This document shows positions 1,842 to 34,191 of a stretch of DNA of 49,093 nucleotides, in pieces. The translations under genes and the position numbers were made by a program. Under the pieces are notes generated by a model. The model did not search any database. It had not been told where the DNA came from and worked only from the letters and a program-made list of their open reading frames with translations. Position 1 is the stretch's first letter. The number at the start of each line of letters is the position of its first letter. This DNA comes from a virus: positions 1 to 49,093 of IMG/VR virus record IMGVR_UViG_3300027503_000759. One strand, 5' to 3'.

Positions 1842-2257
1842 GTGACAAGGATTTGCTGAAAAAGATGGCTCTGGCGATGGCGTCGGAGGACTGGGCGACC
1901 GTTGCCGAGGTGGCCAGCCAGATGGCTGGCAAGGAGACTACCCCTCCCGAGGTCGCTGCAAAACCGAAGAAAGCGCCCAAAAGCAAAAAGGCACCAGAAC
2001 CTGCCAAGTCTGTATCGACCAACCAGTTCAAGGATGACCTGTCTCTTGAGAAGGGACATATTGCCACCGACAAGAAGCTAAACCGGAAGATGCGCCCGGC
2101 AGCCCGCAGACCTCCTTCGCAAAACCAGAGGATGGTTGATGTGGTCTGTCCAAAGTGCAACAGGACGCATCAGGTGGCAGCCGTGCAGGCGGCGTTGCGG
2201 CGCGAGATCGATTCCGGGGTGGTTTGTCCTGGTTGTCTGAAGAGGGGGAGATCATGA
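1838..2257 (+). CDS. Hypothetical protein with C-terminal zinc ribbon
   Basis: 139 residues, ATGA overlap with the preceding gene. The N-terminal part is helical, followed by a low-complexity Lys/Ala/Pro linker (about residues 40-60). The last 40 residues hold two paired cysteines, CPKCNRTH and VCPGC, spaced like a small zinc ribbon. Such proteins often bind nucleic acid or other replication proteins. A role at the fork is inferred only from its place immediately before the helicase gene, with which it again shares an ATGA. Confidence 0.7.
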   Translation: MSDKDLLKKMALAMASEDWATVAEVASQMAGKETTPPEVAAKPKKAPKSKKAPEPAKSVSTNQFKDDLSLEKGHIATDKKLNRKMRPAARRPPSQNQRMVDVVCPKCNRTHQVAAVQAALRREIDSGVVCPGCLKRGRS

Positions 2258-3705
2258 ATCAAGATCCGGCAGCAGAGAGGGCCGTTTTGGCGGCTCTTCT
2301 CAAGGGTGGGCACGAGGCATGGGTGGATGTCTCCGATGTGTTGTCGGCAGACTGTTTCAGCTGTGGCACCAACGCCGTCTATTACCGTTGCCTGGAGAAG
2401 GTTCTTGCCGAACCGAACTCCAAGGCAGACATCCCCTCCATTGTGTCGGCGGCTGGCACTCTGGGGTTTGCGGACACCTTCAAGTCCCAGGAAGAGCAGA
2501 AATACCTGCGGGCCTTGGCTGTTACTCCGGTTGAACCATCCAATTTGCGCAGGTTGGCTGCGCGTTTGGTGAAACTGCACAAGGCCAACGAATTCTCGGA
2601 AGTGATGAAGGAGTCGGCCCAGAAATTGGCCAGCATTTCCGGGGACGAGACGCTGGGCGAAATCCTGGGGATCGGTGAAGAAGCGGTTTTCAATTTCGTT
2701 GGGAGCCTGGGCAACCAGTCCGAAAGCCTGGCGCATATCTCCAAGGATCTGGACGAATACATCGACTATCTGGCCGCAAACCCGTCAGATGTCATGGGGA
2801 TCAGTTCTGGTCTTCCCCAGTACGATGCCGCCATTGGCGGGGGGTTCCAGCGTGGCACAGTCAATGTCATCGGTGCCCGACCCAAGACAGGCAAAACCCA
2901 GCTGGCAGACAATATCGCCCTGCATGTCGCCTCCAAGCTGAATATTCCCGTGCTCAACCTGGACACGGAAATGTCCGCAAAGGAGCATTGGCACCGCATG
3001 TTGGCGAACCTAGCCAATGTGACCGTGGACGATGTCAAGAGTGGCAAGTTTGGCGCCGACGAGGTGAAGTCCAAGGCGGTCTATGAGGCCAAGGAGAAGC
3101 TGAAGAACATCCCCTACCACTATGCCTCCATCGCCGGCCAGCCGTTTGAGGAGACGGTCGGGTCGATGCGTCGCTGGCTGTACCGGCATGTCGGTTTCGA
3201 CGAGTCTGGACAGACCAAACCGGCTCTCATTGTCTTCGATTACATCAAGCTGATGGACGACCGCAGCATCACCAAGAACATCTCGGAATTCCAGGCGTTG
3301 GGTTTCCTGATGACTAACTTGCACAATTTTGCGGTGCGTTATCAGGTGCCTGTCTTGGCTTTTGTCCAGTTGAACCGGGACGGCATCAACGCCGAGGACA
3401 CAAGCACGGCCAGCGGTTCCGATCGCATCATCTGGCTCTGCTCAAATTTCAGCATCTACAAGTGGAAGTCCCAGGAGGAAATGGCCGAAGAGGGTGTGGG
3501 TCCGGACGGGGTCAGGTACAACCTGAAGCTCATTCCGGTGGTGTCTCGGCACGGCAAGGGTCTTGATGGTGGGGATTACATCAACATTCAGGGGCAGTAC
3601 GAATATGGCAGACTCAAGGAAGGACCGACGCGGAACGGACTACTCCGAAGCAAACCCACGCGGTCAGGCTTCGACAATCCCACCCAAGAGTCCGCAGAAT
3701 TTTGA
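2254..3705 (+). CDS. Replicative DNA helicase, DnaB family
   Basis: 483 residues from the ATG that overlaps the previous stop. An in-frame start further upstream at 2155 would overlap the preceding gene heavily. The N-terminal region (about 1-110, starting NQDPAAERAVLAALL) is the DnaB N-terminal domain. The RecA-like core carries Walker A GARPKTGKTQLA (about 206-217), Walker B LIVFDYIKLM (about 325) and a FVQLNRDG motif near 370. DnaB-family hexamers unwind the fork 5' to 3' and recruit primase. The gene is followed by, and overlaps, the primase gene. No intein is present in the core. Confidence 0.9.
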   Translation: MNQDPAAERAVLAALLKGGHEAWVDVSDVLSADCFSCGTNAVYYRCLEKVLAEPNSKADIPSIVSAAGTLGFADTFKSQEEQKYLRALAVTPVEPSNLRRLAARLVKLHKANEFSEVMKESAQKLASISGDETLGEILGIGEEAVFNFVGSLGNQSESLAHISKDLDEYIDYLAANPSDVMGISSGLPQYDAAIGGGFQRGTVNVIGARPKTGKTQLADNIALHVASKLNIPVLNLDTEMSAKEHWHRMLANLANVTVDDVKSGKFGADEVKSKAVYEAKEKLKNIPYHYASIAGQPFEETVGSMRRWLYRHVGFDESGQTKPALIVFDYIKLMDDRSITKNISEFQALGFLMTNLHNFAVRYQVPVLAFVQLNRDGINAEDTSTASGSDRIIWLCSNFSIYKWKSQEEMAEEGVGPDGVRYNLKLIPVVSRHGKGLDGGDYINIQGQYEYGRLKEGPTRNGLLRSKPTRSGFDNPTQESAEF

Positions 3706-4726
3706 GCGGCTGCGCAAAATAGCAGCTGCCGCCACCCAAAAGCTGGAGACTGTTCTTGACGCCCTCGGGCTGGAGTACAAGCCTGCCGAGAATTCCTTCT
3801 TTACGGCATGCCCAGTCCATGGTGGCGACAACCCGACCGGCTGTAGGGTTTACTACAACGCCTCGATGGGCTACTGGCAATGCTTCACTCGTGGTTGCGA
3901 GAAAGTCTTCCGGGATGACACTTTCGGGTTTGTGCGGGGAGCATTGTCCCGCCAGCGTTACGGGTGGGTCGCTGAAGGAGACAAGGTCGCCACGGTCGCA
4001 GAAACCGAGAAGTTCCTTTCGGCTCTGTTGGCGATTGCCCCGGGGGCAGACATACCCCAGGTTGACAAGAGTCAGCGGGAATTCGTCACGGCAACCCGGA
4101 TCATGCAGGTCGAGAGCGGTCCCGTGGGCAAATGGGGGCGTGATCTTGTCCGATCCCGGATGGAGATACCCAGCAAGTTCTTCCAGGGGCGCGGATTTGG
4201 CCAGGAGGTCTTGAACCATTTCGATGTCGGCGACACGAAGCAGGGGCCTTTTGCTGGCCGCGCTGTTGTCCCCGTTTATGACTACACGGGCCGCATGGCC
4301 GTTGGTTTTTCTGCCCGGGCCATCGGGGACATGCAGCCAAAGTGGCGTCATTCCGAGGGGTTCTCCCGCTCCCGCGTCCTTTACAACCAGTTTGCTGCGT
4401 TTCGGGATGCTCGTCGCAACGGAACCATCATCCTGACTGAAGGCCCCTGTGATGTTTGGCGCCTTTGGGAAGCCGGTTATCACAATGCGGTGGCACTGTT
4501 TGGCGTTGCCTTGAGCGATGCCCAGCAAGTCCTGCTGGAGTCATCTGGAGCAAGCCGTGTGATCGTCTTCCTGGATGACGATGAGGCTGGCCAGATAGCT
4601 TCACAAAAAATCATCGGCCAGCTTTCTCGGTCTTTTCGAGTGCTTTCAGCCCAGGCTGGCAAGGGACGCGATCCTGCCGATTTGTCTGTCGACGAAATGA
4701 AAGAGATTTTAGGGAGACTCAAGTAA
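3605..4726 (+). CDS. DNA primase, DnaG type (zinc-binding and Toprim domains)
   Basis: 373 residues starting at ATG 3605, preceded by AGGGG. It overlaps the 3' end of the helicase gene by about 100 bases in another frame. A zinc-binding module CPVHGGDNP...C...WQCFTRGC (about residues 69-100) is followed by a Toprim domain with ILTEGPCDVWRLWEAG (about 275-290, catalytic Glu) and FLDDDEAG (about 321-328, metal-binding acidic cluster). It synthesises RNA primers for lagging-strand replication. At 373 residues it is shorter than a host DnaG (about 580), lacking an obvious helicase-binding C-terminal domain, which is usual in phages. The next gene starts on its last base. Confidence 0.88.
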   Translation: MADSRKDRRGTDYSEANPRGQASTIPPKSPQNFERLRKIAAAATQKLETVLDALGLEYKPAENSFFTACPVHGGDNPTGCRVYYNASMGYWQCFTRGCEKVFRDDTFGFVRGALSRQRYGWVAEGDKVATVAETEKFLSALLAIAPGADIPQVDKSQREFVTATRIMQVESGPVGKWGRDLVRSRMEIPSKFFQGRGFGQEVLNHFDVGDTKQGPFAGRAVVPVYDYTGRMAVGFSARAIGDMQPKWRHSEGFSRSRVLYNQFAAFRDARRNGTIILTEGPCDVWRLWEAGYHNAVALFGVALSDAQQVLLESSGASRVIVFLDDDEAGQIASQKIIGQLSRSFRVLSAQAGKGRDPADLSVDEMKEILGRLK

Positions 4727-7841: not shown

Positions 7842-9767
7842 ATGAGTTGGGTTCCGCTGCATTGTCACAGCATGTATAGCTTGCTTGATGGGCTTAGCAA
7901 GCCTGATGCTATTGCTAGCAGATGTGAGAAGTTGGGCTACAAGGCTTGTGCGATTACTGATCATGGCACGCTTTCCGGCGTCGCCGCTTTTTCCAAGGCC
8001 CTTCGCAAGAAAAATATCAAGCCGATCCTTGGGTCGGAATTTTATCTTTGTTCTGGACCCGCACACGACAAGCGCCCCGAGAATGGATCGCTGTCGCACC
8101 TGTGTGTGTTGGCAAAGGGCGAGGAGGGATGGAAGAGACTCGTTCAAGCCTCGAGCGACTCGAACGACCCCAATCATTTTTACCGCAAGCCTAGGCTGGA
8201 CTTGGAGTTGCTGGCAAAACATGCGGACGGCAAGTTCATCGTTTTTTCTGGACATCCTGGTAGCGACCTCTGCAATGCCTTGTTTGAAAATCCCAAAGCT
8301 GCGTATGGCTGCCAGACATATGAGCAGGCCAGGGCAATGGTGCCTTCCGACTGGGAAAAGCGCCTTCTCGCAGTTACAAATCGATACAGGAATCTGTTCG
8401 GGGACAAAAATTTTTGGATTGAGATCCAAGCTGTCGATCAGGACAACCTTCCGGCCGCTGCCGTGACGGTCAAGGCATTGCGTCATTTTGCCAAGAAATA
8501 CAACATTAAAACGCTAGCTACTCCAGACGCCCACTATCCAGCCAGCGAAGATGCTGCGGATCAAAGAGTTCTGCTTTGTTCTGCTATGCAAACAACTCTT
8601 CCTACGATACACTCAGCATTATCCAAGCAAGAAGATGTTTCTCTTGGTGGTTTCTTCAGGTCTAATCGCTATCATATTCCAGATTTTGATGAGGTGAAAG
8701 GCCTGCACACGCCTCAGGAAATTGATGCGTCTCTGGAGATCAGCGATTTATGCGGGGATTATGACATCCTTTCCAAACCTCAGCTGCCTGAGTTTGCCTG
8801 CCCCAACGGCATGAGTGCCGACGAGTATGTGCGTCAGCTTTGTCGTGAAGGCTGGAAAAAGAAATTGAAGCACGCTGCTCAGGGCACGCCTGAATTTGTC
8901 GCCTACGGCGATCGGGTCAAGAAAGAGCTTGGGGTTATCACCGAGGCTGGGTTGTCTGCCTACTTCCTGATCGTGTCTGAATATTGCGATTGGGCGAGGA
9001 GCCAGGGGTGGTTGGTTGGCAAAGGACGCGGTTCTGGTGCCGGATGTCTGGTCAGCTACCTGCTCGGCATCACCAATGTTGACCCCGTCAAATACAACCT
9101 GCTGTTTGAGCGTTTTTACAACGCAGGTCGCAACCAGCCTGGTCGCGTGAGCCTGCCGGATATTGATTGCGACTTCCCCATCTCGCACCGCGATGAAGTT
9201 GTGCAACACATGCGCGACCGCTACGGCGAGGATCGTGTTGCCCAGATGGTCACTTTTTCTAGACTACAGGGGCGTGCTGCCATCAAGGATGTTTTAAGGG
9301 CGCATGAAAAGGGGACTTTCGATGAAATCAACAAGATTACCGACCATATTCCTGACGAGGCAGCCATCTCTGATGAACTTCAGGAAATGCGCGAGGAGAC
9401 AGGCGAAGCATCAATCTTGATGTGGGCCTTGGAGAACAACGCCAAGGAACTAGCTCCCTGGTGTCGCATCGGAGACAGCGGTCAACTGGAAGGGCCTCTG
9501 GCCGTAGAGTTTGCCCAAGCTATCCGTCTTGAAGGAACTAAGCGAAATCAATCAAAACATGCGGCTGGCGTGGTGATTGCGCCTAGATCGTTGGCCGACT
9601 GCTGTCCTATGGTATTTGACAAGTCTACGAACCGTCGCATCTGCGGTGTGGAAATGTCCGACTTGGAAGCCATGGGCTTTGTCAAGTTTGACATCTTGGG
9701 GGTCGCAGCCCTCGACAAGATGCAAGGTGCTATTTCTTTGCTGAAGGGGGGGTCTGTCCGTGTTTGA
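7842..9767 (+). CDS. DNA polymerase III alpha subunit (C family), N-terminal half: PHP and palm domains
   Basis: 641 residues from ATG 7842, placed just after a G-rich ribosome site; an upstream TTG would add eleven residues with no homology. The PHP domain is recognisable by LHCHSMYSLLDG (H-x-H, residues 7-9), AITDHGTLSG and LGSEFYL. The polymerase core has GKGRGSGAGCLVSYLLG (about 393-410) and LPDIDCDF (about 438-445), which holds the first two catalytic aspartates. The third is in FVKFDILG (about 613-620). The protein stops about 25 residues later, exactly where DnaE passes into the fingers. It therefore has all three catalytic aspartates but needs the partner at 10703 for fingers and OB domains. 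No intein sequence is seen at the end. Confidence 0.92.
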   Translation: MSWVPLHCHSMYSLLDGLSKPDAIASRCEKLGYKACAITDHGTLSGVAAFSKALRKKNIKPILGSEFYLCSGPAHDKRPENGSLSHLCVLAKGEEGWKRLVQASSDSNDPNHFYRKPRLDLELLAKHADGKFIVFSGHPGSDLCNALFENPKAAYGCQTYEQARAMVPSDWEKRLLAVTNRYRNLFGDKNFWIEIQAVDQDNLPAAAVTVKALRHFAKKYNIKTLATPDAHYPASEDAADQRVLLCSAMQTTLPTIHSALSKQEDVSLGGFFRSNRYHIPDFDEVKGLHTPQEIDASLEISDLCGDYDILSKPQLPEFACPNGMSADEYVRQLCREGWKKKLKHAAQGTPEFVAYGDRVKKELGVITEAGLSAYFLIVSEYCDWARSQGWLVGKGRGSGAGCLVSYLLGITNVDPVKYNLLFERFYNAGRNQPGRVSLPDIDCDFPISHRDEVVQHMRDRYGEDRVAQMVTFSRLQGRAAIKDVLRAHEKGTFDEINKITDHIPDEAAISDELQEMREETGEASILMWALENNAKELAPWCRIGDSGQLEGPLAVEFAQAIRLEGTKRNQSKHAAGVVIAPRSLADCCPMVFDKSTNRRICGVEMSDLEAMGFVKFDILGVAALDKMQGAISLLKGGSVRV

Positions 9768-10050
9768 TGAAGAATCTGAAGAAGTTGGTCTTTCCAAGCG
9801 CATGGTGGCACACAATCTGGCTTTGTTGGACGCCCTTGCTGAAGCTTCTGAGGCCAAGAAACGCATGGCCGAGGAGATGGGCAATGTCATCAAGGCGATC
9901 CTGATCAAATTCGGGGGGGAGATCACGCTGGATGGCACATTCATCGCCGCTGCTGAATCGCCAACCTGCACATTGAATCACGAGATTCTGTCCAACGGCG
10001 AAGTCCTGCGGTTTTGGGTCGAGGAAGTCGAAGAGGGGGATGACGAATGA
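9760..10050 (+). CDS. Hypothetical small protein between the polymerase halves
   Basis: 96 residues from GTG 9760, with a run of seven G eight bases upstream (9746-9752) as ribosome site. It overlaps the polymerase N-half by eight bases and the exonuclease start by four. The N-terminal half is a probable helix (LALLDALAEASEAKKRMAEE), the rest mixed, with an acidic tail EEVEEGDDE. I do not recognise a family. Its position suggests a small accessory factor of the polymerase-exonuclease complex, but nothing in the sequence proves that. Confidence 0.7.
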   Translation: MFDEESEEVGLSKRMVAHNLALLDALAEASEAKKRMAEEMGNVIKAILIKFGGEITLDGTFIAAAESPTCTLNHEILSNGEVLRFWVEEVEEGDDE

Positions 10051-10703
10051 CCACCAACATCATTATTTGTTTTGACTTTGAGACGGGCGGTTTGGACATC
10101 AGAACCACCGAGCCAATCGAAATCGCTGCGGTCGCCATCAACCCCAGGACTCTGTCGGTAGTGCCGGATGGCACATTCTACAGCCTGTGCAAGCCGACCG
10201 ATTTCTCCCTCCTGCAAGACCAGGCTCTGGCCGTCAACGGCAAGACGCGTGACCAGCTGAGGGCTGCGCCTGAGCAGGAAGCGGTCTGGCGTTCTTTCTG
10301 TTCTTTCATCAAGCGGTTCAATCCCAAGGGGAACAGCTTCACGACGGCGCCCATTGCCGCCGGGAAAAACATCCGCGCTTTTGACCTGCCGATTTTCAAT
10401 CGTCTTTGCGCCAAGTACGGCTTTGCCGACAAGAACGGGGATCAAAACCTGTTCCATCGCCGGAAGGTCTATGACTTGGAGGATCTGCTGGAGTTCTGGT
10501 TTCATGACTCCGAAGAGCTTCCCGATCGCAAGATGGACACCTTGCGCGGATATTTTGGGATGAGCCGGGACGGGGCGCATTCGGCCATGGTGGACACGAA
10601 ACAGACGGCAGAATTGATCGTCCGCTTTTTGAAAGTGCATCGGTATTATGCCGCCAAAATCCCGTTCCGTGGAGCTTGCGCCAAGAACCCGGTGATCATC
10701 TGA
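10047..10703 (+). CDS. DnaQ-like 3'-5' exonuclease (proofreading subunit)
   Basis: 218 residues, ATGA overlap. DEDDh exonuclease motifs are in order: FDFETGG (Asp10 and Glu12), KNIRAFDLPIF (Asp, about 112) and GAHSAMVDTKQTAEL (His about 175 and Asp about 180). This is the domain plan of epsilon subunits and RNase T-type enzymes, and the length is close to E. coli DnaQ (about 243). Lying between the two polymerase genes, it most likely proofreads for that polymerase. Its stop overlaps the C-half start by one base, which implies translational coupling and balanced synthesis of the three parts. Confidence 0.88.
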   Translation: MTTNIIICFDFETGGLDIRTTEPIEIAAVAINPRTLSVVPDGTFYSLCKPTDFSLLQDQALAVNGKTRDQLRAAPEQEAVWRSFCSFIKRFNPKGNSFTTAPIAAGKNIRAFDLPIFNRLCAKYGFADKNGDQNLFHRRKVYDLEDLLEFWFHDSEELPDRKMDTLRGYFGMSRDGAHSAMVDTKQTAELIVRFLKVHRYYAAKIPFRGACAKNPVII

Positions 10704-12334
10704 TGGCCGAGTATCACATGTCCTGTGGTTGTTCCTGGCCGATAGTCGGGGATTCGCCACGCCAAGGCGCTCTTCCCCTGCTTGATGTCGATGTGTCCAA
10801 GCTGCCGGATTGTCATCTGGCCTGGGACATCATGTCGATTGGCAATACCAAGGGTGTCTTCCAGCTGGAAAGCCGGCTGGGGGCAACCTGGGCCAAAAAG
10901 CTCAGGCCCAGGAATGACGAGCACCTTTCGGCTTTGGGCGCTTTGTTGCGCCCGGGCTGTTTGGCCGCCAAAGACGAGAACGGCATCAGCCTGACCGAAC
11001 ACTACTGCCGTCGCGTCAACAAAGAAGAGCCTGCTGACTCGTTCGACCCCGCCCTAGACGAAATACTCGGGCCGACTGAGCAGATTTTGGTTTATCAAGA
11101 ACAAGCCATGCAGATTGGAGCAAAGTTTGCTGGCTTCGATCTTAAAAATGTCGACAGGCTACGCAAGGCCATCGGCAAGAAGGATCAGAAGGAAATGGCC
11201 GAGGTCAAGCGGCTTTTCCTTGAGGGGGCAGAAAAGGTCAAGGTCGTTTCCATGGATGTGGCCGAGACCGTTTGGGGCTGGATCGAGAAGGCTGGACGGT
11301 ACTCTTTCAACAAGTCCCACAGCATGAGCTACGGGCTGACTGGGTACGACACCGCCTATCTCAAGTCCCACTTCCCGGTGCAGTTCTATACCTCGTGGCT
11401 GGCCTACGCCGAAGACAAGGTTGATCCGGATCAGGAAGTCATGGAGTTGGTCGAGGATGCCCGCAGGGCCGGGATCACCGTGTTTCCGCCCGATGTCCGC
11501 CACAAACAGATGATTTTCTGGACAGATGGCGTCGATATCTTTTTCGGGCTGTCAAACATCAAGGGGTTGGGACAGTCCAATCTACACAAGCTGTTTGAGA
11601 TTATGGAAAAAGCCGAGAAGGATTTGGGCAAGAAATCCACCGAATTCACTTGGGTCGAATGGCTTGTGCATGTTGCCGCAGAAACACCTTCGGTGAATCA
11701 CAAGCTGATCATGGCGGGCGCCCTGGATTGGGCGGGACGCAAGCGGCAACGAATGCTGGCCGAGATCGATGTTGTCGCCTCGCTCACCAAGAAGGAGCAG
11801 GCCTGGATTCTGAAGAACTGCAATGGAGACGAGCCGTTTGTCGATGTGCTTCGACGGTTGGCCAAACCGAAGAAGGAAGGCGGTGGTGTGGCCAATGTGA
11901 AACGCGGGTCTCTGGTGAATGGCCAGGCGACCCTTCTGGAGAATCCACCCACCCCGTTGAGCGACCATCCGGCTTGGATGGCTTGGGCAGAAGAGCAGGT
12001 CTTTGGGTTCGCCCTGACCTGTTCTCGCGTTGACGGTTGCGATCTGGGTGACGCAAACACGACCTGCGGCGAATTCTTGGCTGGAAAGACTGGATTTCTT
12101 CTCCTTGGCGTTGAGGTGAGAGGGGTCAGGTCGTTTAAGACAAAGAAAGGGACCATGATGGCTTTCCTTTCTCTATCGGATTCGTCCGGGATGCTGGACG
12201 ATGTGGTGTGTTTCTCTGAGCCTTGGGAGGAGTACAAGCATCTCCTGTCTGAGGGGAACACGGTTTTGGTGCAGGGCGAACGAGACCCCAAGAAAGGTTC
12301 GTTGGTCGTGCGCAAGGTTTTTCAGATGTCATGA
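10703..12334 (+). CDS. DNA polymerase III alpha subunit (C family), C-terminal half: fingers to OB fold
   Basis: 543 residues from ATG 10703, overlapping the exonuclease stop (TGATG). An upstream in-frame ATG at 10676 would overlap more. A short N-terminal segment with MSCGCSWPI has no counterpart in ordinary DnaE. It is followed by the DnaE fingers motif GVFQLESRLG (about 51-60), ILVYQEQAMQIG (about 126), SFNKSHSMSYGLTGYDTAYL (about 200-220) and an OB-fold region near 467-541. With the N-half the total is 1,184 residues, close to a whole DnaE. The site used by cyanobacterial split DnaE inteins (before FNKSH) is intact and intein-free. The half-proteins must associate non-covalently. Confidence 0.92.
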   Translation: MAEYHMSCGCSWPIVGDSPRQGALPLLDVDVSKLPDCHLAWDIMSIGNTKGVFQLESRLGATWAKKLRPRNDEHLSALGALLRPGCLAAKDENGISLTEHYCRRVNKEEPADSFDPALDEILGPTEQILVYQEQAMQIGAKFAGFDLKNVDRLRKAIGKKDQKEMAEVKRLFLEGAEKVKVVSMDVAETVWGWIEKAGRYSFNKSHSMSYGLTGYDTAYLKSHFPVQFYTSWLAYAEDKVDPDQEVMELVEDARRAGITVFPPDVRHKQMIFWTDGVDIFFGLSNIKGLGQSNLHKLFEIMEKAEKDLGKKSTEFTWVEWLVHVAAETPSVNHKLIMAGALDWAGRKRQRMLAEIDVVASLTKKEQAWILKNCNGDEPFVDVLRRLAKPKKEGGGVANVKRGSLVNGQATLLENPPTPLSDHPAWMAWAEEQVFGFALTCSRVDGCDLGDANTTCGEFLAGKTGFLLLGVEVRGVRSFKTKKGTMMAFLSLSDSSGMLDDVVCFSEPWEEYKHLLSEGNTVLVQGERDPKKGSLVVRKVFQMS

Positions 12335-12343
12335 GGTGAATTC

Positions 12344-12766
12344 GTGAACAATTGCATTTTCATTGGGAACTTCGTGCGTGACCCCGAGCTTCAGAGCGTG
12401 GGGGCTGAACACCGCGTGGCAAAATTTGCCATCGCTGTCAACGGTGGCCGCAAGAACCGCAACGGAGAGGAGGAGGTCGCATTCATTGAGTGCGAAGCCT
12501 GGGACAAATCCGCTGACACCATCAGCAAGTACATGAAGAAGGGGTCGAAGATCGCCATCCAGGCGACCGCACGCACCGACACCTGGACTGACAAGTCGAG
12601 TGGCACCAAGCGTTCGACCTTGCGTTTTCGGGTGAACAACTTCACCTTCCTGGGAGCCAAGAACACCGAAGCCAGATCGGATAAGGCCGTAGCAGCCGGG
12701 GTGGGTGCCGAGGACGAGGGTGTCGGTTTTGCCAGTGGTGCTGACGGCGAAGAAATCCCCTTCTGA
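12344..12766 (+). CDS. ssb: Single-stranded DNA-binding protein
   Basis: 140 residues from GTG 12344 with GAGGTG just upstream. NNCIFIGNFVRDPEL at the N-terminus, IECEAWDKSAD in the middle and LRFRVNNFTFLG before residue 110 are bacterial-type SSB OB-fold strands. The tail is acidic and ends EEIPF, matching the interaction tip (DDIPF-like) used to recruit replication partners. It coats single-stranded DNA at the fork and closes the replication gene block. The first sugar-related gene begins eight bases later. Confidence 0.92.
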   Translation: MNNCIFIGNFVRDPELQSVGAEHRVAKFAIAVNGGRKNRNGEEEVAFIECEAWDKSADTISKYMKKGSKIAIQATARTDTWTDKSSGTKRSTLRFRVNNFTFLGAKNTEARSDKAVAAGVGAEDEGVGFASGADGEEIPF

Positions 12767-12774
12767 GAAAAACA

Positions 12775-14376
12775 ATGGCACGCATCCTTCTGGTTGGTGA
12801 GGCGACTTGGTTGCAGACTGGCTATGCCACATACGCAAGCCAGATTGCCCACAAGCTTAAAGCAGCCGGTCATGAGATCGGGGAGTTGGCTTGTTACGGT
12901 GTTCCAAGTGATCCGAGGCGGGCGTCAAGCCCGTGGCCGGCTTTCTTCGTGACCACGAACACGGACAACTATCCGCCTCTGGCCATCAACCAGTCCAATC
13001 CCGCGCTGGGGGCCACGATCTTTGAGGAAACCGTCCTGCGTTTCAAGCCGGATGTTGTTATCTCATTGCGTGACCCCTGGCAGGATGCGTTCATTGCTTA
13101 TTCGCCGCTGCGTTCTTACTATCGCTGGGTGTTCATGCACCCCGTCGACGGCGAACCTCAGGATGACGAATGGATTTCGGTATTGAATCAGGCCGATGCC
13201 GTACTGTGTTATTCGGAATACGGCCTGAATGTCCTGAAGCAGTATCCCGGCCTAAACCTGGCCGGGGTCGCTTCCCCCGGAGCTGAGCCGGATGTATTCT
13301 TCCCGCACTCTCAGCACGAATCCCGCGAGGCTCTGAACATCCCGCAGGATGCCCTGGTCGTGGGCACGGTGATGCGCAACCAGGGGCGCAAGCTGTACCC
13401 CGATCTTTTTGAAAGTTTCAAGAAGTTGCTGGACACGGCACCATCCCACATAGCCGACCGACTTTACCTGTACTGCCACACGGCTTGGCCCGATGTTGGC
13501 TGGGACATGCCCAAGTACCTGCTGCGACACGGTGTTGCCCACAGAACCCTGTTCACATTCGCCTGCAAGAAGTGCGATCGGGCCTCTGCCCTGCTCTGGC
13601 AGATGCCAGCCGGGTACTGTCCGTACTGCGCAAGTGGCGAATTAACCACCCCCGGCGTGGCTTCCGGCCTTCCTAGGTCGTTCATGCGGCCGGTGTATTC
13701 ATCCATGGACGTATTCGTGCAATACTCGGTGTGCGAGGGCTTCGGAATGCCGCAGGTTGAAGCAGCCTGTTGTGGTGTCCCGGTGGTCTCGGTTGACTTC
13801 ACCGCCATGTCTTCTGTGGCCTCGGCTATCGGGGCCGAAACCATCCCAGTCCAACGCGCTTTCCCCGAATTGGAAACCGGACGGATGATGGCTTTGCCGG
13901 ACAACAATGCCTTGGTGTCCGCCCTGACCAACCTCTTCTCGTCGCCGCCCGCATTGCGTCGAGCGATTGGTCAAAAACATAGAGATATGGCTAGTGCTAC
14001 ATTCAGCTATGAAAAAGCAGCTAATGTGTGGCTAAATACAATATCAAGCTTGCAAAAACCAACAAAAAGCTATCAAGATAATAAAAGAATATTGCCTAAT
14101 TTATCTAAACCAGAAGAATATCTATCAAATAAAGAATGGGTTGACAAGGCTTTTGTTTCAGCCCTGGGAATCTCTTCTGCTCAGGCCGGATACCTAGCCC
14201 AAAGGATGCTGCGGGATCTTTCTCGTGGTTATTGTGATACCACTTTTGTCCCCTCTCAATACACAAGTTTTGGCCCGGGTGGCAAGCTGGGAGCTTTCAA
14301 CCGGGAACATGCTTGGGAACAACTGTGTGCCGAACGTCACAGGATTGAGTTTTGGGAGGAAATGCGGGCATCATGA
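12775..14376 (+). CDS. GT-B glycosyltransferase (GT4-like) with an inserted cysteine motif
   Basis: 533 residues, longer than typical GT4 enzymes (about 350-400). It opens with a Rossmann strand RILLVGEATWLQTGYATYA. The donor-binding half has DVFVQYSVCEGFGMPQVEAA (about 312-331), the E-x(7)-E pattern of GT4 enzymes. An insertion holds FACKKCD and YCPYCASG (Cys 264, 267, 282, 285), a probable structural zinc site. Codons from about 13975 to 14160 are clearly AT-rich compared with both sides and encode a linker before a 90-residue C-terminal segment of unknown role. First gene of the sugar cassette; overlaps the next glycosyltransferase by ATGA. Acceptor and donor unknown. Confidence 0.8.
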   Translation: MARILLVGEATWLQTGYATYASQIAHKLKAAGHEIGELACYGVPSDPRRASSPWPAFFVTTNTDNYPPLAINQSNPALGATIFEETVLRFKPDVVISLRDPWQDAFIAYSPLRSYYRWVFMHPVDGEPQDDEWISVLNQADAVLCYSEYGLNVLKQYPGLNLAGVASPGAEPDVFFPHSQHESREALNIPQDALVVGTVMRNQGRKLYPDLFESFKKLLDTAPSHIADRLYLYCHTAWPDVGWDMPKYLLRHGVAHRTLFTFACKKCDRASALLWQMPAGYCPYCASGELTTPGVASGLPRSFMRPVYSSMDVFVQYSVCEGFGMPQVEAACCGVPVVSVDFTAMSSVASAIGAETIPVQRAFPELETGRMMALPDNNALVSALTNLFSSPPALRRAIGQKHRDMASATFSYEKAANVWLNTISSLQKPTKSYQDNKRILPNLSKPEEYLSNKEWVDKAFVSALGISSAQAGYLAQRMLRDLSRGYCDTTFVPSQYTSFGPGGKLGAFNREHAWEQLCAERHRIEFWEEMRAS

Positions 14377-15503
14377 ACGACATCCTCTACATTGGCAATT
14401 TTCATGACGGAACGGGTTATGCCAGGGCCTGTTGCGAGACAGCCATTGCGTTAGAGGAGGCTGGAGCCAGAGTTATTTGTCGGCCAATCACCTTCAACGG
14501 TGCCTCCCACCCCTGCCATGAGAAAATCTACGGGCTGGAAGAACGCGCTATGCCCGCCAGGTTTGATGCGGTCATTCAGCACACCCTGCCGCCCATCATG
14601 AAGTTTGACCGCAGGCTCGGTCTGAATGTGGCCAATTTTTACTACGAGGCTAGCAGGTTCACCAGCGCAGGGTGGGATTTGCACCTGAACATGATGGATG
14701 TGGTTGTCACGACACCAGGAATCTCAACGAAAGCTTGCTCCAACAGTCGGGTGAACAAGCCGACCATCAGCCTGCCCCTACCCAGCGATGTCCATCGCTA
14801 TCTGAAAAAGTATCCGGTTCCGGATTTCATTCGACAGTACGTCAACGAGAAGAAGTTTGTCTTCTACACGATCGGCGAGAATGTCCGACGCAAAAATTTG
14901 GGTGGGTTGATCAAGGCCTATTACAGCGAGTTTCTGCCGACCGAAAATGTCGTGCTCGTCATCAAGACAAACGGCGATCCGCGCCATGTCCAATCGATGA
15001 TGCGCGAGATCGGACAGGGCATGAAACTGCCTTATCTTCCAGAAATAGTCGTGATCACGGAACGGTTGACAGAAGATCAGCTGATGGGTCTTCATGCTCA
15101 CGGATCATGTTTTGTCCAGGCCTCTTGTGGTGAAGCCTGGTCTTATCCGGCCTTTGACGCAATGGCGATGGGCAGGACTCCGGTTGTGCCAGACACCGGA
15201 ACCTATCGCTCCTATATCTCGGATGAGACCGGCTATCTCGTTCCCGTCTACGACGAGCCATGCTCGGGCGGTCAGGACGAGTCAGCCGAGCTTTACCGTG
15301 GCGACGAACAATGGGAGGTTCCTTTTACCAAGGATCTGTCCCATGCGATGCGAAGGGCTTACAGGGAGGATGACCAGCGTCAAGCGAAAGCTTCGCTCGG
15401 TCTGGAAGTGGCGTACCAATTCATCCCCCTGAAGGTCGGCAAGACCTTCCTGGAGGCTCTTGACCATGCGACGCAAAAACAAGCTGTGGACCGATTTTCT
15501 TGA
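14373..15503 (+). CDS. GT-B glycosyltransferase (GT4-like)
   Basis: 376 residues starting at the ATG that overlaps the previous stop. It starts ILYIGNFHDGTGYARACCET, the usual acceptor-domain first strand and glycine loop. The second domain shows VFYTIGENVRRKNLGGLIKA (about 167-186) and ASCGEAWSYPAFDAMAMG (about 250-267), where Glu residues and a Pro/Gly turn bind the nucleotide sugar in GT4 enzymes. It is similar in plan to the preceding enzyme but without the cysteine insertion. Together they may add successive sugars. The end overlaps phoH by 38 bases. Confidence 0.82.
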   Translation: MNDILYIGNFHDGTGYARACCETAIALEEAGARVICRPITFNGASHPCHEKIYGLEERAMPARFDAVIQHTLPPIMKFDRRLGLNVANFYYEASRFTSAGWDLHLNMMDVVVTTPGISTKACSNSRVNKPTISLPLPSDVHRYLKKYPVPDFIRQYVNEKKFVFYTIGENVRRKNLGGLIKAYYSEFLPTENVVLVIKTNGDPRHVQSMMREIGQGMKLPYLPEIVVITERLTEDQLMGLHAHGSCFVQASCGEAWSYPAFDAMAMGRTPVVPDTGTYRSYISDETGYLVPVYDEPCSGGQDESAELYRGDEQWEVPFTKDLSHAMRRAYREDDQRQAKASLGLEVAYQFIPLKVGKTFLEALDHATQKQAVDRFS

Positions 15504-16209
15504 AGATGATAATGACCCAGAACTGATTCCGTGGCAACAAGTTAGGGACGCCGATGTTGAAAAACGGTTTGATGCTAAGAAGCCTGTTAAGAAGATCAAG
15601 GCCAGGACGCCCAACCAACAGAACTACATCAACAATATTGAGGCCTGCACTCTGACTATCTGCACTGGCCCGGCTGGTTGCGGTAAAACCTACATCCCCT
15701 GCGGTCTCGCCGCCAACTGGCTCCACGAGAACAAGATCGAAAAGGTCATTCTGACCCGACCCATCGTTGAGTGCGGTCAAAGGCTGGGCGCCCTGCCTGG
15801 CACTTTGGGTGAAAAGACCGACCCTTTCATGGCCCCCATGTTTGATGCCTTCGGGGATTTTCTCGACCCGGGATTCCTCAAGCACTGCCGGAACAAGGAG
15901 ACCATTGAGGTGGTCCCCCTGGAAACGATGCGCGGTCGAACATTCCACAACTCGGTGATCATTCTGGACGAGGCCCAGAATGTGACCCGTCGCCAGATGA
16001 AAATGTTTCTCACCCGTTTTGGTGAGAATTCCAAGGTCATCGTTTGCGGAGACGTTACCCAGACAGACTTGCCCCACTCTGAAGGCAATCCGCTCATCTG
16101 GGTGTGGGAAAAGTTAGGTCATCCTGACATCGCCAAGGTCACTCTGGGGCCAGAAGATGTTCAGCGCCATGGCTTAATTCGCCATATCCTTGAGCGTTTG
16201 GGAGACTGA
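15466..16209 (+). CDS. phoH: PhoH-family ATPase
   Basis: 247 residues. I chose ATG 15466 because TGGAGG ends nine bases upstream; a TTG at 15460 is too close to it. Walker A is GPAGCGKTYI (about 68-77) and Walker B is VIILDEAQNVT (about 164-174); VILTRPIVECGQRLGALPG is typical PhoH sequence. PhoH proteins are cytoplasmic P-loop ATPases, often carried by phages, with proposed roles in RNA metabolism or phosphate stress. Its place between glycosyltransferase genes is unusual and gives no clear functional link. Confidence 0.9.
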   Translation: MRRKNKLWTDFLEDDNDPELIPWQQVRDADVEKRFDAKKPVKKIKARTPNQQNYINNIEACTLTICTGPAGCGKTYIPCGLAANWLHENKIEKVILTRPIVECGQRLGALPGTLGEKTDPFMAPMFDAFGDFLDPGFLKHCRNKETIEVVPLETMRGRTFHNSVIILDEAQNVTRRQMKMFLTRFGENSKVIVCGDVTQTDLPHSEGNPLIWVWEKLGHPDIAKVTLGPEDVQRHGLIRHILERLGD

Positions 16210-16240
16210 CCCCTGTGCGGCATGGGTAAGATCGTTAGCG

Positions 16241-16257
16241 ACGGCCATCCGGGCCGT
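16241..16257 (+). terminator. Short hairpin between phoH and the next glycosyltransferase; weak terminator or mRNA processing element
   Basis: The 65-base gap contains a perfect 6-bp stem ACGGCC/GGCCGT with a 5-base loop, followed by only three T. This is too weak for confident intrinsic termination but is the only structured element in the gap. It could attenuate transcription or stabilise the upstream mRNA 3' end. Confidence 0.35.
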
Positions 16258-16274
16258 TTCAACGGGTCTTATCC

Positions 16275-17297
16275 ATGCCAGACATTGCCAGCATCCTAAA
16301 ATCTGCCGTCCGCAAGACTGACAGGATCAATGTCCTCACTTTTGTTACCCACGAGCGGTACCAAAGTGCTTGGGGCGGGGTGGACGCCAATTTTTTCCTG
16401 TGGAATGATGAAAACGCCAAGCCGTGGATGCGCCAATATGCGCCCATGCCAGCCAACCACATCCTGCTGCCCTTCCATCCGTCGACGCCAAATGTTCCTG
16501 TCGGCATAGACATAGACCTCGTGATCACGCACCATCTCAGCCAGTACGACCGGGCTTTGCAGGCTGCGACGCATTTGGGTGTCCCGTTGCTGCGCCTGGA
16601 ACATTGTCTGCCCGACGAGACTTGGTCTCCTGAGCAAGTTCGCTTCGCCAAGGCCAAATCGGGCGATGTGAATGTCTTCATCACCCAACACCAGCTGAAA
16701 GCCTGGGGTGGGTGCGAGGACGATTTCGTGATCTACAACGCCATCGACACGGATTTGTTCCGGCCGCGGGATGGTGGCAGCCGAGATCCGGTTTGCCTGA
16801 GCGTGGTCAACGACTGGATCAAGCGTGATTATGTCTGCGGCTTCAGTTTCTGGAAACTGGCCACGAAAGACCTTCCCGTCCGTGTGCTGGGCGACACGCC
16901 AGGCCTGTCCAAAGCAGCCGCCAACGTCGAAGAGTTGGCTGATGCCTACCGCAGTTCGTTGTTGTTTCTCTGTACTGCCACCAACAGTTCCCTGCCCACG
17001 ACCGTCCTTGAGGCCATGGCCTCCGGTTGTTGTGTGGTGGCCTACCGTGCGACCGCTATCGAGGAAGCCATTGAGCATGGCGTGAATGGTTTTCTCGTCG
17101 ACAGTCCAGAGGAGATGAACGCCACCGTCAAAAGACTGCTGGCGAATCCGTCCTATTGCGAGATGATCGGCGCAGCAGCCAGGGAAAGGGCTGTTGGCCG
17201 TCACAACCTGGATGTTTTTGTGGAGAAGTGGAGCCAGGCCCTGCGTCTGGCCGTAGACGCCCCGTGGTGGAGGAAACAATGGTCAAGTTGCGCTTGA
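16275..17297 (+). CDS. GT-B glycosyltransferase (GT4-like)
   Basis: 340 residues after a 65-base gap. FVIYNAIDTDLFRP (about 155) is the classic hinge segment of GT4 enzymes. TNSSLPTTVLEAMASGCCVV (about 236-255), with VLEAMASG, is the nucleotide-sugar binding motif, followed by NGFLVDSPEEMNATVKRLL. It probably transfers an activated sugar in the cytoplasm. It overlaps the next start by 19 bases. Acceptor unknown. A large open frame on the opposite strand here is a composition shadow. Confidence 0.85.
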   Translation: MPDIASILKSAVRKTDRINVLTFVTHERYQSAWGGVDANFFLWNDENAKPWMRQYAPMPANHILLPFHPSTPNVPVGIDIDLVITHHLSQYDRALQAATHLGVPLLRLEHCLPDETWSPEQVRFAKAKSGDVNVFITQHQLKAWGGCEDDFVIYNAIDTDLFRPRDGGSRDPVCLSVVNDWIKRDYVCGFSFWKLATKDLPVRVLGDTPGLSKAAANVEELADAYRSSLLFLCTATNSSLPTTVLEAMASGCCVVAYRATAIEEAIEHGVNGFLVDSPEEMNATVKRLLANPSYCEMIGAAARERAVGRHNLDVFVEKWSQALRLAVDAPWWRKQWSSCA

Positions 17298-33580: not shown

Positions 33581-34191
33581 TAGATGTCCCCTATGTAACC
33601 ATGCGTGATCAAATCAACAGAATTGGTATCCACGCCTGTGCCTGCCGTGATCATGTCCAGCGACCCTGTCGATCCCACGGGACCAACCAAATACAATACG
33701 CAGCCAGCACTGGCCTCCTGGGCATATCCGGTGATAGTGAGCGGCAACGTGGAAAAGGTTTCGGGCGTGCGCCAAACCACGAGATTCAGCCCGGTTCCGA
33801 AGACCGGAGCTTCCAGAATCAGCGGCAATGCGTTCTCCACCAACTCGGTGGCGCTGTTGACTGTCAGCAAAGGCAACGAACTGGAAAGGTTTTTGTTCGC
33901 CCCCTCTACAAACAGGTTCATGTTCTGTTGGATATCAGATTTATTACACAATATATATAAATTTAGCCCTTTGCCATAAGTTTTACCACTGATAATCAGG
34001 GGTAAGGTGTTGGCAACGCCAGAAAACACGCCGAGGGTGTGGAGGGGAAGAGAATCCCCACCCGAAGGTATTTCGGCAACCTTGAGGAACAGGTTGAGCG
34101 GTTCCCAGGAGAGAGACTCGCCCCCGAACCCGAGGACTAATCCCCCGGGTGTGGCCAGTATGTCCCCCAGCCTGCCCGTGAAGACACTCAT
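33580..34191 (-). CDS. Tail protein built of about ten 15-residue beta repeats
   Basis: 203 residues, directly after the tape measure (one-base overlap) and TAATG coupled to the next gene. Residues 32-176 form a tandem array whose units begin LNLFL, SLPLH, TLPLI, LNLYI, MNLFV, SLPLL, ALPLI, LNLVV, TLPLT and VLYLV. The flanks carry weaker copies. Such short beta repeats usually build fibres or prisms, so this may be a fibre- or spike-like tail component. I cannot name the family. Confidence 0.6.
   Translation of the reverse strand: MSVFTGRLGDILATPGGLVLGFGGESLSWEPLNLFLKVAEIPSGGDSLPLHTLGVFSGVANTLPLIISGKTYGKGLNLYILCNKSDIQQNMNLFVEGANKNLSSSLPLLTVNSATELVENALPLILEAPVFGTGLNLVVWRTPETFSTLPLTITGYAQEASAGCVLYLVGPVGSTGSLDMITAGTGVDTNSVDLITHGYIGDI
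33664..34098 (-). repeat. Tandem LPL/LNL repeat of about 15 residues
   Basis: About ten consecutive units of 13-16 residues, each starting with a hydrophobic triplet (LPL or LNL), a beta strand of three to five residues and a Gly/Asn/Ser turn. The repeat is visible only at protein level; codons differ between units, so it is old or under selection rather than a recent DNA duplication. Confidence 0.65.

What the first reader, a model, noticed from the sequence alone, without database searches (positions are those of the whole stretch)
7842..12334. Replicative polymerase split in two, with its exonuclease and an unknown gene between the halves
The N-half ends just after the third catalytic aspartate (FVKFDILG) and the C-half restarts at the fingers motif GVFQLES. 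The split therefore lies at the palm/fingers border, not at the site used by cyanobacterial split inteins, and no intein blocks are present. The exonuclease is encoded exactly in the gap and all four genes overlap by 1-8 bases, which suggests equal, co-translational assembly of a multi-part replicase. The C-half carries a new N-terminal segment (MSCGCSWPI...) that could be the docking element, and the 96-residue protein could be the staple.
Basis: partly seen in the sequence, partly recalled or inferred. Interest (0 to 1): 0.7.

Follow-up and report, generated by a model that had tools for sequence, protein, structure and literature searches.

The report
Two-piece phage replicase with nested exonuclease
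A large family of uncultivated phages encodes its copying enzyme as two separate proteins, with the gene for a likely error-correcting nuclease between them, which suggests that a bacterial-type replication polymerase can be kept in pieces over long evolutionary time.

Summary
The window carries a complete PolIII-alpha (DnaE-type) polymerase core in two genes (7842-9767, 10703-12334), with a 96-aa gene and a DEDDh exonuclease between; the genes overlap by 8, 4 and 1 bases. The halves meet on Taq DnaE at about residues 635/637, the palm/fingers border. It is no sequencing error: 86 of 86 dereplicated split loci and 64 of 64 loci from a deeper scan (27 new) have the order N-half, exonuclease, C-half. 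The split tips form one clade in every tree, with SH support from 0.43 to 1.0. Polymerase aspartates are kept in at least 77 of 78. No intein or known intron lies at the split, so the likeliest form is a non-covalent two-chain polymerase with a trans-acting exonuclease; assembly is inferred, not shown. The 'staple' idea is weak: its slot holds three unrelated families and is empty in 6 of 27 deeper loci. The Cys-Gly-Cys hairpin opening the C-half occurs in 72 of 113 loci. Split phage polymerases are known, and two cultured phages are split at the same border without an exonuclease between. New here is the clade-wide cassette: a new variant of a known kind.

The parts
7842..9767 (+). N-half of PolIII alpha: PHP, palm, thumb, all three catalytic Asp (D440, D442, D617), GRGS nucleotide motif
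9760..10050 (+). 96-aa protein P0002 (family F3): long N-terminal helix plus C-terminal beta-hairpin in a middling model; function unknown; under purifying selection against L003
10047..10703 (+). DEDDh 3'-5' exonuclease (RNase_T/DnaQ type), putative proofreading subunit
10703..12334 (+). C-half of PolIII alpha: fingers, HhH, OB; model mean pLDDT 91.4; matches Taq PolIII alpha 636/637-1122
10703..10750 (+). new N-terminal Cys-Gly-Cys hairpin of the C-half (residues 1-16; C8, G9, C10); residues 1-10 aligned to none of the listed PolIII structures
9760..9767 (+). 8-base overlap of N-half stop and P0002 start
10047..10050 (+). ATGA overlap of P0002 stop and exonuclease start
10701..10705 (+). TGATG: exonuclease stop and C-half start share one base
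2155..4726 (+). context: DnaB-like helicase (2155-3705) and DnaG-like primase (3563-4726) of the same replication gene run
12344..12766 (+). context: single-strand DNA-binding protein directly downstream of the C-half

Best explanation
A phage replicase in pieces. The PolIII alpha chain of an ancestral phage was broken at the loop joining palm and fingers, most likely once for this clade. The two chains are translated from overlapping genes of one gene run and reassociate without a covalent bond to rebuild the polymerase active site (Asp triad and nucleotide motif from the N-half, fingers/HhH/OB from the C-half). The DEDDh exonuclease encoded between them acts in trans as the proofreading subunit, as epsilon does for bacterial DnaE. 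Shown: the split, its site, gene order, one clade, conservation of catalytic residues, purifying selection, no intein or known intron at the split, and no PolA or PolB match in 20 large relatives. Inferred: reassembly, proofreading role, coupling, use of a host sliding clamp. The small protein in the N-exonuclease gap is a lineage-specific accessory, not a required staple. The Cys-Gly-Cys hairpin is a possible docking aid in part of the clade.
For: Order N / exonuclease / C in separate ORFs in 86 of 86 dereplicated split loci and in 64 of 64 further loci with both halves (27 new after dereplication). Halves meet on Taq DnaE (N-half match ends at Taq 635; C-half model from residue 22-23 at Taq 636-637). 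Catalytic Asp kept in 77, 77 and 78 of 78 (one gap each in the first two); C-half Q54, Q132, R154, K155 in 78 of 78; exonuclease D10, E12, D113, H178, D183 in 78 of 78. dN/dS against L003: 0.031, 0.020, 0.025, 0.038 for N-half, P0002, exonuclease, C-half. 20 large records chosen by size: 0 with PolA, 0 with PolB, 20 with PolIII alpha. One clade in each tree: 78 of 78 tips (SH 0.92) and 27 of 27 (SH 1.0), 35 of 35 (SH 1.0). Precedent: the split PolB 43A/43B of phage 25 co-purifies and is active, the split NrdA of Aeh1 is fully active (passages of PMC2988022).
Against: No complex could be modelled and no biochemistry exists. Clade support is low in two trees: SH 0.45 (78 tips) and 0.43 (97 tips). 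The close correlation of N- and C-half distances (r = 0.95) is not specific: exonuclease against either half gives 0.93. A few loci separate exonuclease and C-half by up to 4.4 kb, so tight coupling is not obligatory. All split loci were found with queries made from split members and capped lists, so the survey is of this clade, not of all phages. The exonuclease is only distantly related to epsilon (RNase T, PolC-type exo and ExoI come out better), so its pairing with the polymerase rests on synteny. The 20 records may be fragments.
Confidence: 0.85

Rival explanations
1. The halves are rejoined before use, by an RNA intron removing the middle genes or by protein trans-splicing.
For: Related loci carry an intein (L009) and split inteins with endonuclease-like genes (L075, L114, L130/L131) inside the halves at other sites.
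Against: No intron family in the window (E up to 1: three sub-threshold matches, none an intron) or in 10 relatives (gathering threshold, no match). Nothing intein-like at either side of the split: N-halves stop shortly after the conserved helix, C-halves start shortly before the fingers. The interval varies from under 1 kb to several kb and carries conserved genes with their own starts.
Confidence: 0.05
2. A refinement of the best reading: the small gap protein and the Cys-Gly-Cys hairpin are obligate assembly factors, a four-part replicase with staple and docking element.
For: 84 of 84 loci of the first set and 21 of 27 of the deeper set have an ORF of 40 aa or more in the gap (mechanical ORFs); the window's own is under purifying selection against L003; the hairpin is ordered in the model. 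The split cultured phage phiT1 also has a 49-aa ORF between its halves.
Against: Three unrelated families share the slot; 6 of 27 deeper loci have no such ORF; 41 of 113 C-halves lack the Cys-Gly-Cys (19 of 86 and 22 of 27); P1201 is split at the same border with neither.
Confidence: 0.15
3. The halves do not reassemble: each has a separate role, or they are relics and the host polymerase copies the phage.
For: No direct evidence of assembly here.
Against: Active-site residues from both halves are kept over up to 64-69% divergence, strong purifying selection against L003, full set of replication genes around, no PolA or PolB in 20 relatives.
Confidence: 0.06
4. Sequencing or assembly error, or a recent pseudogene.
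For: None found.
Against: Same break in 86 + 27 dereplicated loci from many samples.
Confidence: 0.005

Closest known systems
Split PolB (gp43A/gp43B) of Aeromonas phages 25 and 44RR, and split NrdA of Aeh1 (genes-in-pieces; PMC2988022, passages)
   Same: An essential phage enzyme in two chains that co-purify and are active (phage 25 polymerase; Aeh1 reductase), with other sequence between the two genes
   Different: Family B polymerase or reductase; the interval holds a homing endonuclease or untranslated sequence; few phages named. Here family C, the interval holds the exonuclease and usually a small gene, clade-wide
Split minimal PolIII alpha of group 2.2 jumbo phages (PMC7824862, section 13 read, passages elsewhere)
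   Same: C-family polymerase in two proteins in phages
   Different: That one is minimal, split between NTP- and Mg-binding subdomains, encoded by distant genes beside a PolB; here full PHP-to-OB enzyme, split palm/fingers, one gene run, no PolB found
Corynebacterium phage P1201 gp59/gp58 and Rossellomorea phage phiT1 gp20/gp18
   Same: PolIII alpha in two genes at the same palm/fingers border
   Different: Independent origins by the trees (beside unsplit Hawkeye, SH 1.0; beside unsplit Bacillus-type phage polymerases, SH 0.69-0.95); no exonuclease between; phiT1 has a 49-aa ORF, P1201 a direct gene overlap
Cellulophaga phage phi19:2 (gp044/gp045), Bacillus phage Jayan, Bacillus phage vB_BpsS-140
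   Same: Phage PolIII alpha in two ORFs
   Different: Broken elsewhere: between the GRGS motif and the catalytic DxD (phi19:2, Jayan) or between PHP and palm (BpsS-140)
Cyanobacterial DnaE split intein (site recalled; mentioned in PMC3919608, passages)
   Same: DnaE from two genes
   Different: Intein halves and trans-splicing at another site; absent here
PolC and exonuclease-fused Bacteroidetes DnaE1 (PMC3919608, passages)
   Same: Polymerase and proofreading exonuclease kept together
   Different: There fused in one chain; here a separate gene between the halves

Membership tests
C-family DNA polymerase (DnaE/PolIII alpha) | PHP, palm, fingers, HhH and OB modules in that order | tested here: met
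   summed over the two chains
C-family DNA polymerase (DnaE/PolIII alpha) | three catalytic aspartates | tested here: met
   77, 77, 78 of 78 (one gap each in the first two)
C-family DNA polymerase (DnaE/PolIII alpha) | one polypeptide chain (usual, not defining) | tested here: not met
C-family DNA polymerase (DnaE/PolIII alpha) | C-terminal tau-binding domain after OB (DnaE1) | tested here: inconclusive
   the C-half ends with the OB fold, at about E. coli 1074; no dedicated test of the domain
Split-intein DnaE | intein halves at the break | tested here: not met
   no room for one and no Hint match in the window halves
Genes-in-pieces (Aeh1 NrdA, phage 25 gp43) | one coding region of relatives split into two polypeptides with other sequence between | tested here: met
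Genes-in-pieces (Aeh1 NrdA, phage 25 gp43) | homing endonuclease as the intruder | tested here: not met
   for the window; other loci's gap genes were clustered, and only single F1 and F2 members were searched; L036 has a Cys-rich ORF there that looks nuclease-like by eye
Genes-in-pieces (Aeh1 NrdA, phage 25 gp43) | the two chains assemble into an active enzyme | not testable with these tools
   needs expression
Split minimal PolIII alpha of group 2.2 jumbo phages | accompanied by a family B polymerase | tested here: not met
   0 of 20 records (possibly fragments)
Split minimal PolIII alpha of group 2.2 jumbo phages | minimal enzyme without the other PolIII domains; distant genes | tested here: not met
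DEDDh exonuclease | D-E-D-H-D catalytic set | tested here: met
   78 of 78 at all five positions

The most novel reading that the evidence does not exclude
The cassette N-half / small protein / exonuclease / C-half is a purpose-built multi-chain replicase: order and overlaps set an assembly line in which the exonuclease binds the nascent N-half before the C-half closes the active site, in many lineages through its Cys-Gly-Cys hairpin, and lineage-specific small proteins regulate or stabilise the joint. The split would then be adaptive (for example allowing exchange or control of the fingers half) rather than a frozen accident.
Probability: 0.13. Interest if true: 0.75.

Novelty: new variant of a known kind. 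Interest (0 to 1): 0.5.

Why it matters
It gives a natural experiment of some depth in which a bacterial-type replicase seems, by the sequence signs, to work as two chains broken at the palm/fingers border. By the trees the same border was broken at least three times in phages (this clade, P1201, phiT1), which marks it as a natural fission point and offers a ready design for a two-chain PolIII alpha. The clade's profiles each gave over 590 relatives in a viral metagenome scan (lists capped, and not all of them checked for the split), yet no record of the phage collection searched reached 60% identity (best listed 36.5% for a deep member), and annotators may take the halves for fragments.

Tried and rejected
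Intron or intein at the split: no intron family found, no intein signature, rejected. Staple role for P0002 in general: rejected for the clade, open for the window. P0002 by structure: model pLDDT 71.6, pTM 0.37 from 8 sequences; best BFVD match E 0.084 to an unnamed phage protein; PDB profile search best E 0.43: no function assigned. Hairpin as ancestral trait: parsimony on the first 78 tips gave Cys-Gly-Cys at the root with 5 changes; with the deeper loci (97 tips) the root set is still Cys-Gly-Cys with 5 changes, but the main basal branch of 95 tips is ambiguous and the call rests on two basal tips, so I no longer press it; this is why the novel case went from 0.15 to 0.13. Host genomes: the one genome-contig scan kept 80 loci, 31-35% identity; 73 had full fused polymerases by my filter, none had the halves in different ORFs; no prophage member was seen among those best 80. 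Beta clamp: 0 of 20 records by PF02768; a G-Q-A-x-L stretch near, but not exactly at, the place of the DnaE clamp motif is seen in the five window-subclade rows shown; not pursued. IQ-TREE runs hit the time limit before bootstraps; support values are FastTree SH values only. Literature: the ten searches listed no paper whose listing, abstract or passages, as far as I saw them, describe this cassette; the library holds open-licence papers only. The 2009 fractured-genes paper (seen in reference lists) and the 2011 viral replicase survey (recalled) are not held, so priority cannot be excluded. Origin by loss of a split intein from a fractured gene is attractive, because such elements sit at two other sites of the same polymerases, but no intermediate was found.
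Full report
WHAT IS THERE. The window is a 49,093-base virus record. Its + strand carries replication genes in a row: UvsX-like recombinase, HNH endonuclease, DnaB-like helicase, DnaG-like primase, dNMP kinase, an exonuclease (phrog_69), MazG-like, nucleotidase, then the finding, then SSB. The finding is four genes: N-half 7842-9767, P0002 9760-10050, exonuclease 10047-10703, C-half 10703-12334. The C-half begins at ATG 10703, inside TGATG shared with the exonuclease stop.

WHERE IT IS CUT. By profile, TIGR00594 is matched 1-572 by the N-half and 579-903 by the C-half. On Taq DnaE the N-half match ends at residue 635 and the C-half model starts at 636-637; in the alignment with Salmonella DnaE the two pieces meet in the stretch after the helix that follows the third catalytic Asp. 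That is the palm/fingers border (domain limits of E. coli alpha recalled). Nothing of the core is lost; the C-half ends with the OB fold.

HOW WIDESPREAD. Viral-contig scans with the two halves gave L001-L040. Profile scans gave over 590 relatives each, of which the tool kept the best 80 each. One search scanned 205 loci (196 from these scans and the window's own record, 9 comparators): 186 showed both halves, 96 after dereplication (more than 95% ungapped identity of end pieces of both halves); 86 are split and all 86 have the exonuclease between. The 10 rows labelled fused are L039 and the nine comparators; three of those nine are in fact split at other sites, because my label only asks whether any N-piece shares an ORF with the C-piece. 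In two of the 86 (L068, L071) only the last 64-73 positions of the N-half lie inside the locus. A scan with a profile of deeper members kept 80 loci, 77 of them new to the session; 64 of the 77 show both halves, 64 of 64 split with the exonuclease between, 27 new after dereplication. These scans rank by similarity to split members, so they describe this clade, not all phages. In the phage collection no record reached 60% identity (best listed 36.5%), and the exonuclease had one match, at 27.6%.

ONE CLADE. In FastTree trees of joined halves the split tips always group together: 78 of 78 with SH 0.45 and, with more comparators, 0.92; 27 of 27 with 1.0; 35 of 35 with 1.0; 97 of 97 with 0.43. The 78 are those of the 86 with enough of both halves. 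IQ-TREE gave the same clade of 27 but no bootstraps. Single origin is therefore likely, not proven. Two cultured phages are split at the same border but fall elsewhere: P1201 beside unsplit Hawkeye (SH 1.0), phiT1 beside unsplit Bacillus-type phage polymerases (SH 0.69-0.95) (architecture). Other cultured phages are split at other places: phi19:2 and Jayan before the DxD motif, BpsS-140 after PHP. Jayan is nearly identical to unsplit PS1, so some breaks are very recent. I fetched 25 polymerase-bearing records of the phage collection in all (one is a bacterial contig), a hand-picked part of over 1,200 matching records.

FUNCTIONAL SIGNS. In 78 loci the polymerase Asp are kept in 77, 77 and 78, GRGS Arg and Ser in 78; C-half Q54, Q132, R154, K155 in 78; exonuclease D, E, D, H, D in 78. 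The six PHP metal-site residues tested are kept in 74-78 of 78; the L034/L036/L038 group has a shortened PHP region. Pairwise distances of the halves correlate at r = 0.95, but either half against the exonuclease gives 0.93, so this shows shared descent, not binding. dN/dS against L003 is 0.02-0.04 for all four genes; against L004 and L005 most synonymous estimates are saturated, and P0002 is the least conserved of the four there (61% and 50% identity). Of 20 large records (72-231 kb, chosen by size), none matches PolA, PolB or the beta-clamp domain tried, all match PolIII alpha (the records may be fragments).

THE SMALL GENE AND THE HAIRPIN. In 84 readable loci the N-exonuclease gap holds one ORF of 40 aa or more (73), two (10) or three (1). 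Three families account for 76: F1 41 loci, F2 21, F3 (P0002) 14; profile comparison finds no relation, and each sits in its own part of the tree (5 changes). Among 27 deeper loci 21 have such an ORF and 6 do not. So a small gene is usual, its identity is not. The C-half opens with a new stretch, Cys-Gly-Cys between two strands, pLDDT 93-96. Residues 1-10 are aligned to none of the PolIII structures listed; residues from 11 on are aligned in E. coli entries. The Cys-Gly-Cys is present in 67 of 86 loci of the first set and 5 of 27 of the deeper set. Parsimony puts it at the root of the clade, but on two basal tips. Whether it touches the N-half is unknown.

MOBILE ELEMENTS. L009 has a mini-intein in the C-half between FNK and SHS; L130 and L131 have intein halves with an endonuclease-like gene between at that site; L075 and L114 have the like between GRG and S of the N-half. 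Pfam support, run on L009, L075 and L130: Intein_splicing at E 3e-8 to 3e-6, each under its curated cut-off; Hint over its cut-off in L130 only. The L130 endonuclease matches homing-endonuclease PHROGs. In those phages with split elements the polymerase is encoded in three pieces, two of which would be spliced while the palm/fingers break remains. This shows that fracture of the gene goes on in the clade and suggests, without proof, how the ancestral break arose.

MECHANISM AND RIVALS. Best reading: two chains reassociate, exonuclease acts in trans (0.85). Passages of PMC2988022 tell of a split PolB whose halves co-purify and polymerise, and of a fully active split NrdA. Splicing at this site (0.05) has no support. 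Obligate staple (0.15, a refinement of the best reading) is contradicted as a clade rule. No assembly (0.06) does not fit the conservation.

COMPARISON WITH PRINT. PMC7824862 (section 13 read, passages elsewhere) reports a split minimal PolIII alpha beside a PolB, distant genes, other split place. PMC6892783 (passages) has a split-intein PolB; PMC10580990 (passages) has split phage DNA polymerases with a small ORF inserted, polymerase family not stated in the passages seen. PMC3919608 (passages) lists exonuclease placements in bacterial PolIII alpha. The ten paper searches showed no description of this cassette in what I saw. Verdict: new variant of a known kind, interest 0.5.

Noticed in passing
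L009 6613-7101 (also L030, L064): Mini-intein in the C-half between FNK and SHS, three residues from the recalled cyanobacterial DnaE split-intein site (Pfam match just under its cut-off).
   Followed up: partly
L075 4130-5424, L114 4142-5434, L130/L131 10412-11806: Fractured polymerase genes: intein halves with an endonuclease-like gene between, at GRG|S (N-half) and FNK|S (C-half).
   Followed up: partly
L302 44915-48275 (P1201) and L288 4489-7771 (phiT1): Cultured phages with PolIII alpha independently split at the palm/fingers border, no exonuclease between.
   Followed up: yes
record behind L052 and L131 (206,326 bases): Two different split-polymerase cassettes in one record; a chimeric assembly is one possible reason.
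   Followed up: no
L060 3352-3426: Cys/His-rich stretch of about 25 residues inserted in the PHP domain of the N-half, zinc-finger-like by eye.
   Followed up: no
L034, L036, L038 N-halves: N-half shorter by about 95-150 residues, mostly in the PHP region, while the exonuclease gene is kept.
   Followed up: no
window 34191-46892, - strand: 4,233-aa ORF whose only Pfam match is PhageMin_Tail near its N-terminus: a giant tail-type protein taking a quarter of the window.
   Followed up: partly
window 12775-17297, + strand: Three glycosyltransferase-like genes around a PhoH-like gene after the replication genes.
   Followed up: no
gap slot of L038, L049, L066, L143, L147, L148 and one more: A shared family of about 182-194 aa, uracil-DNA-glycosylase-like by eye, sits between N-half and exonuclease in 7 loci.
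   Followed up: no
BFVD hits of the C-half model: Short PolIII alpha entries of C-half length in named phages, e.g. Bacillus phage G Gp339 (606 aa) and Mycobacterium phage Fowlmouth (463 aa), suggest more split cases; P1201, also on that list (476 aa), proved to be one.
   Followed up: partly
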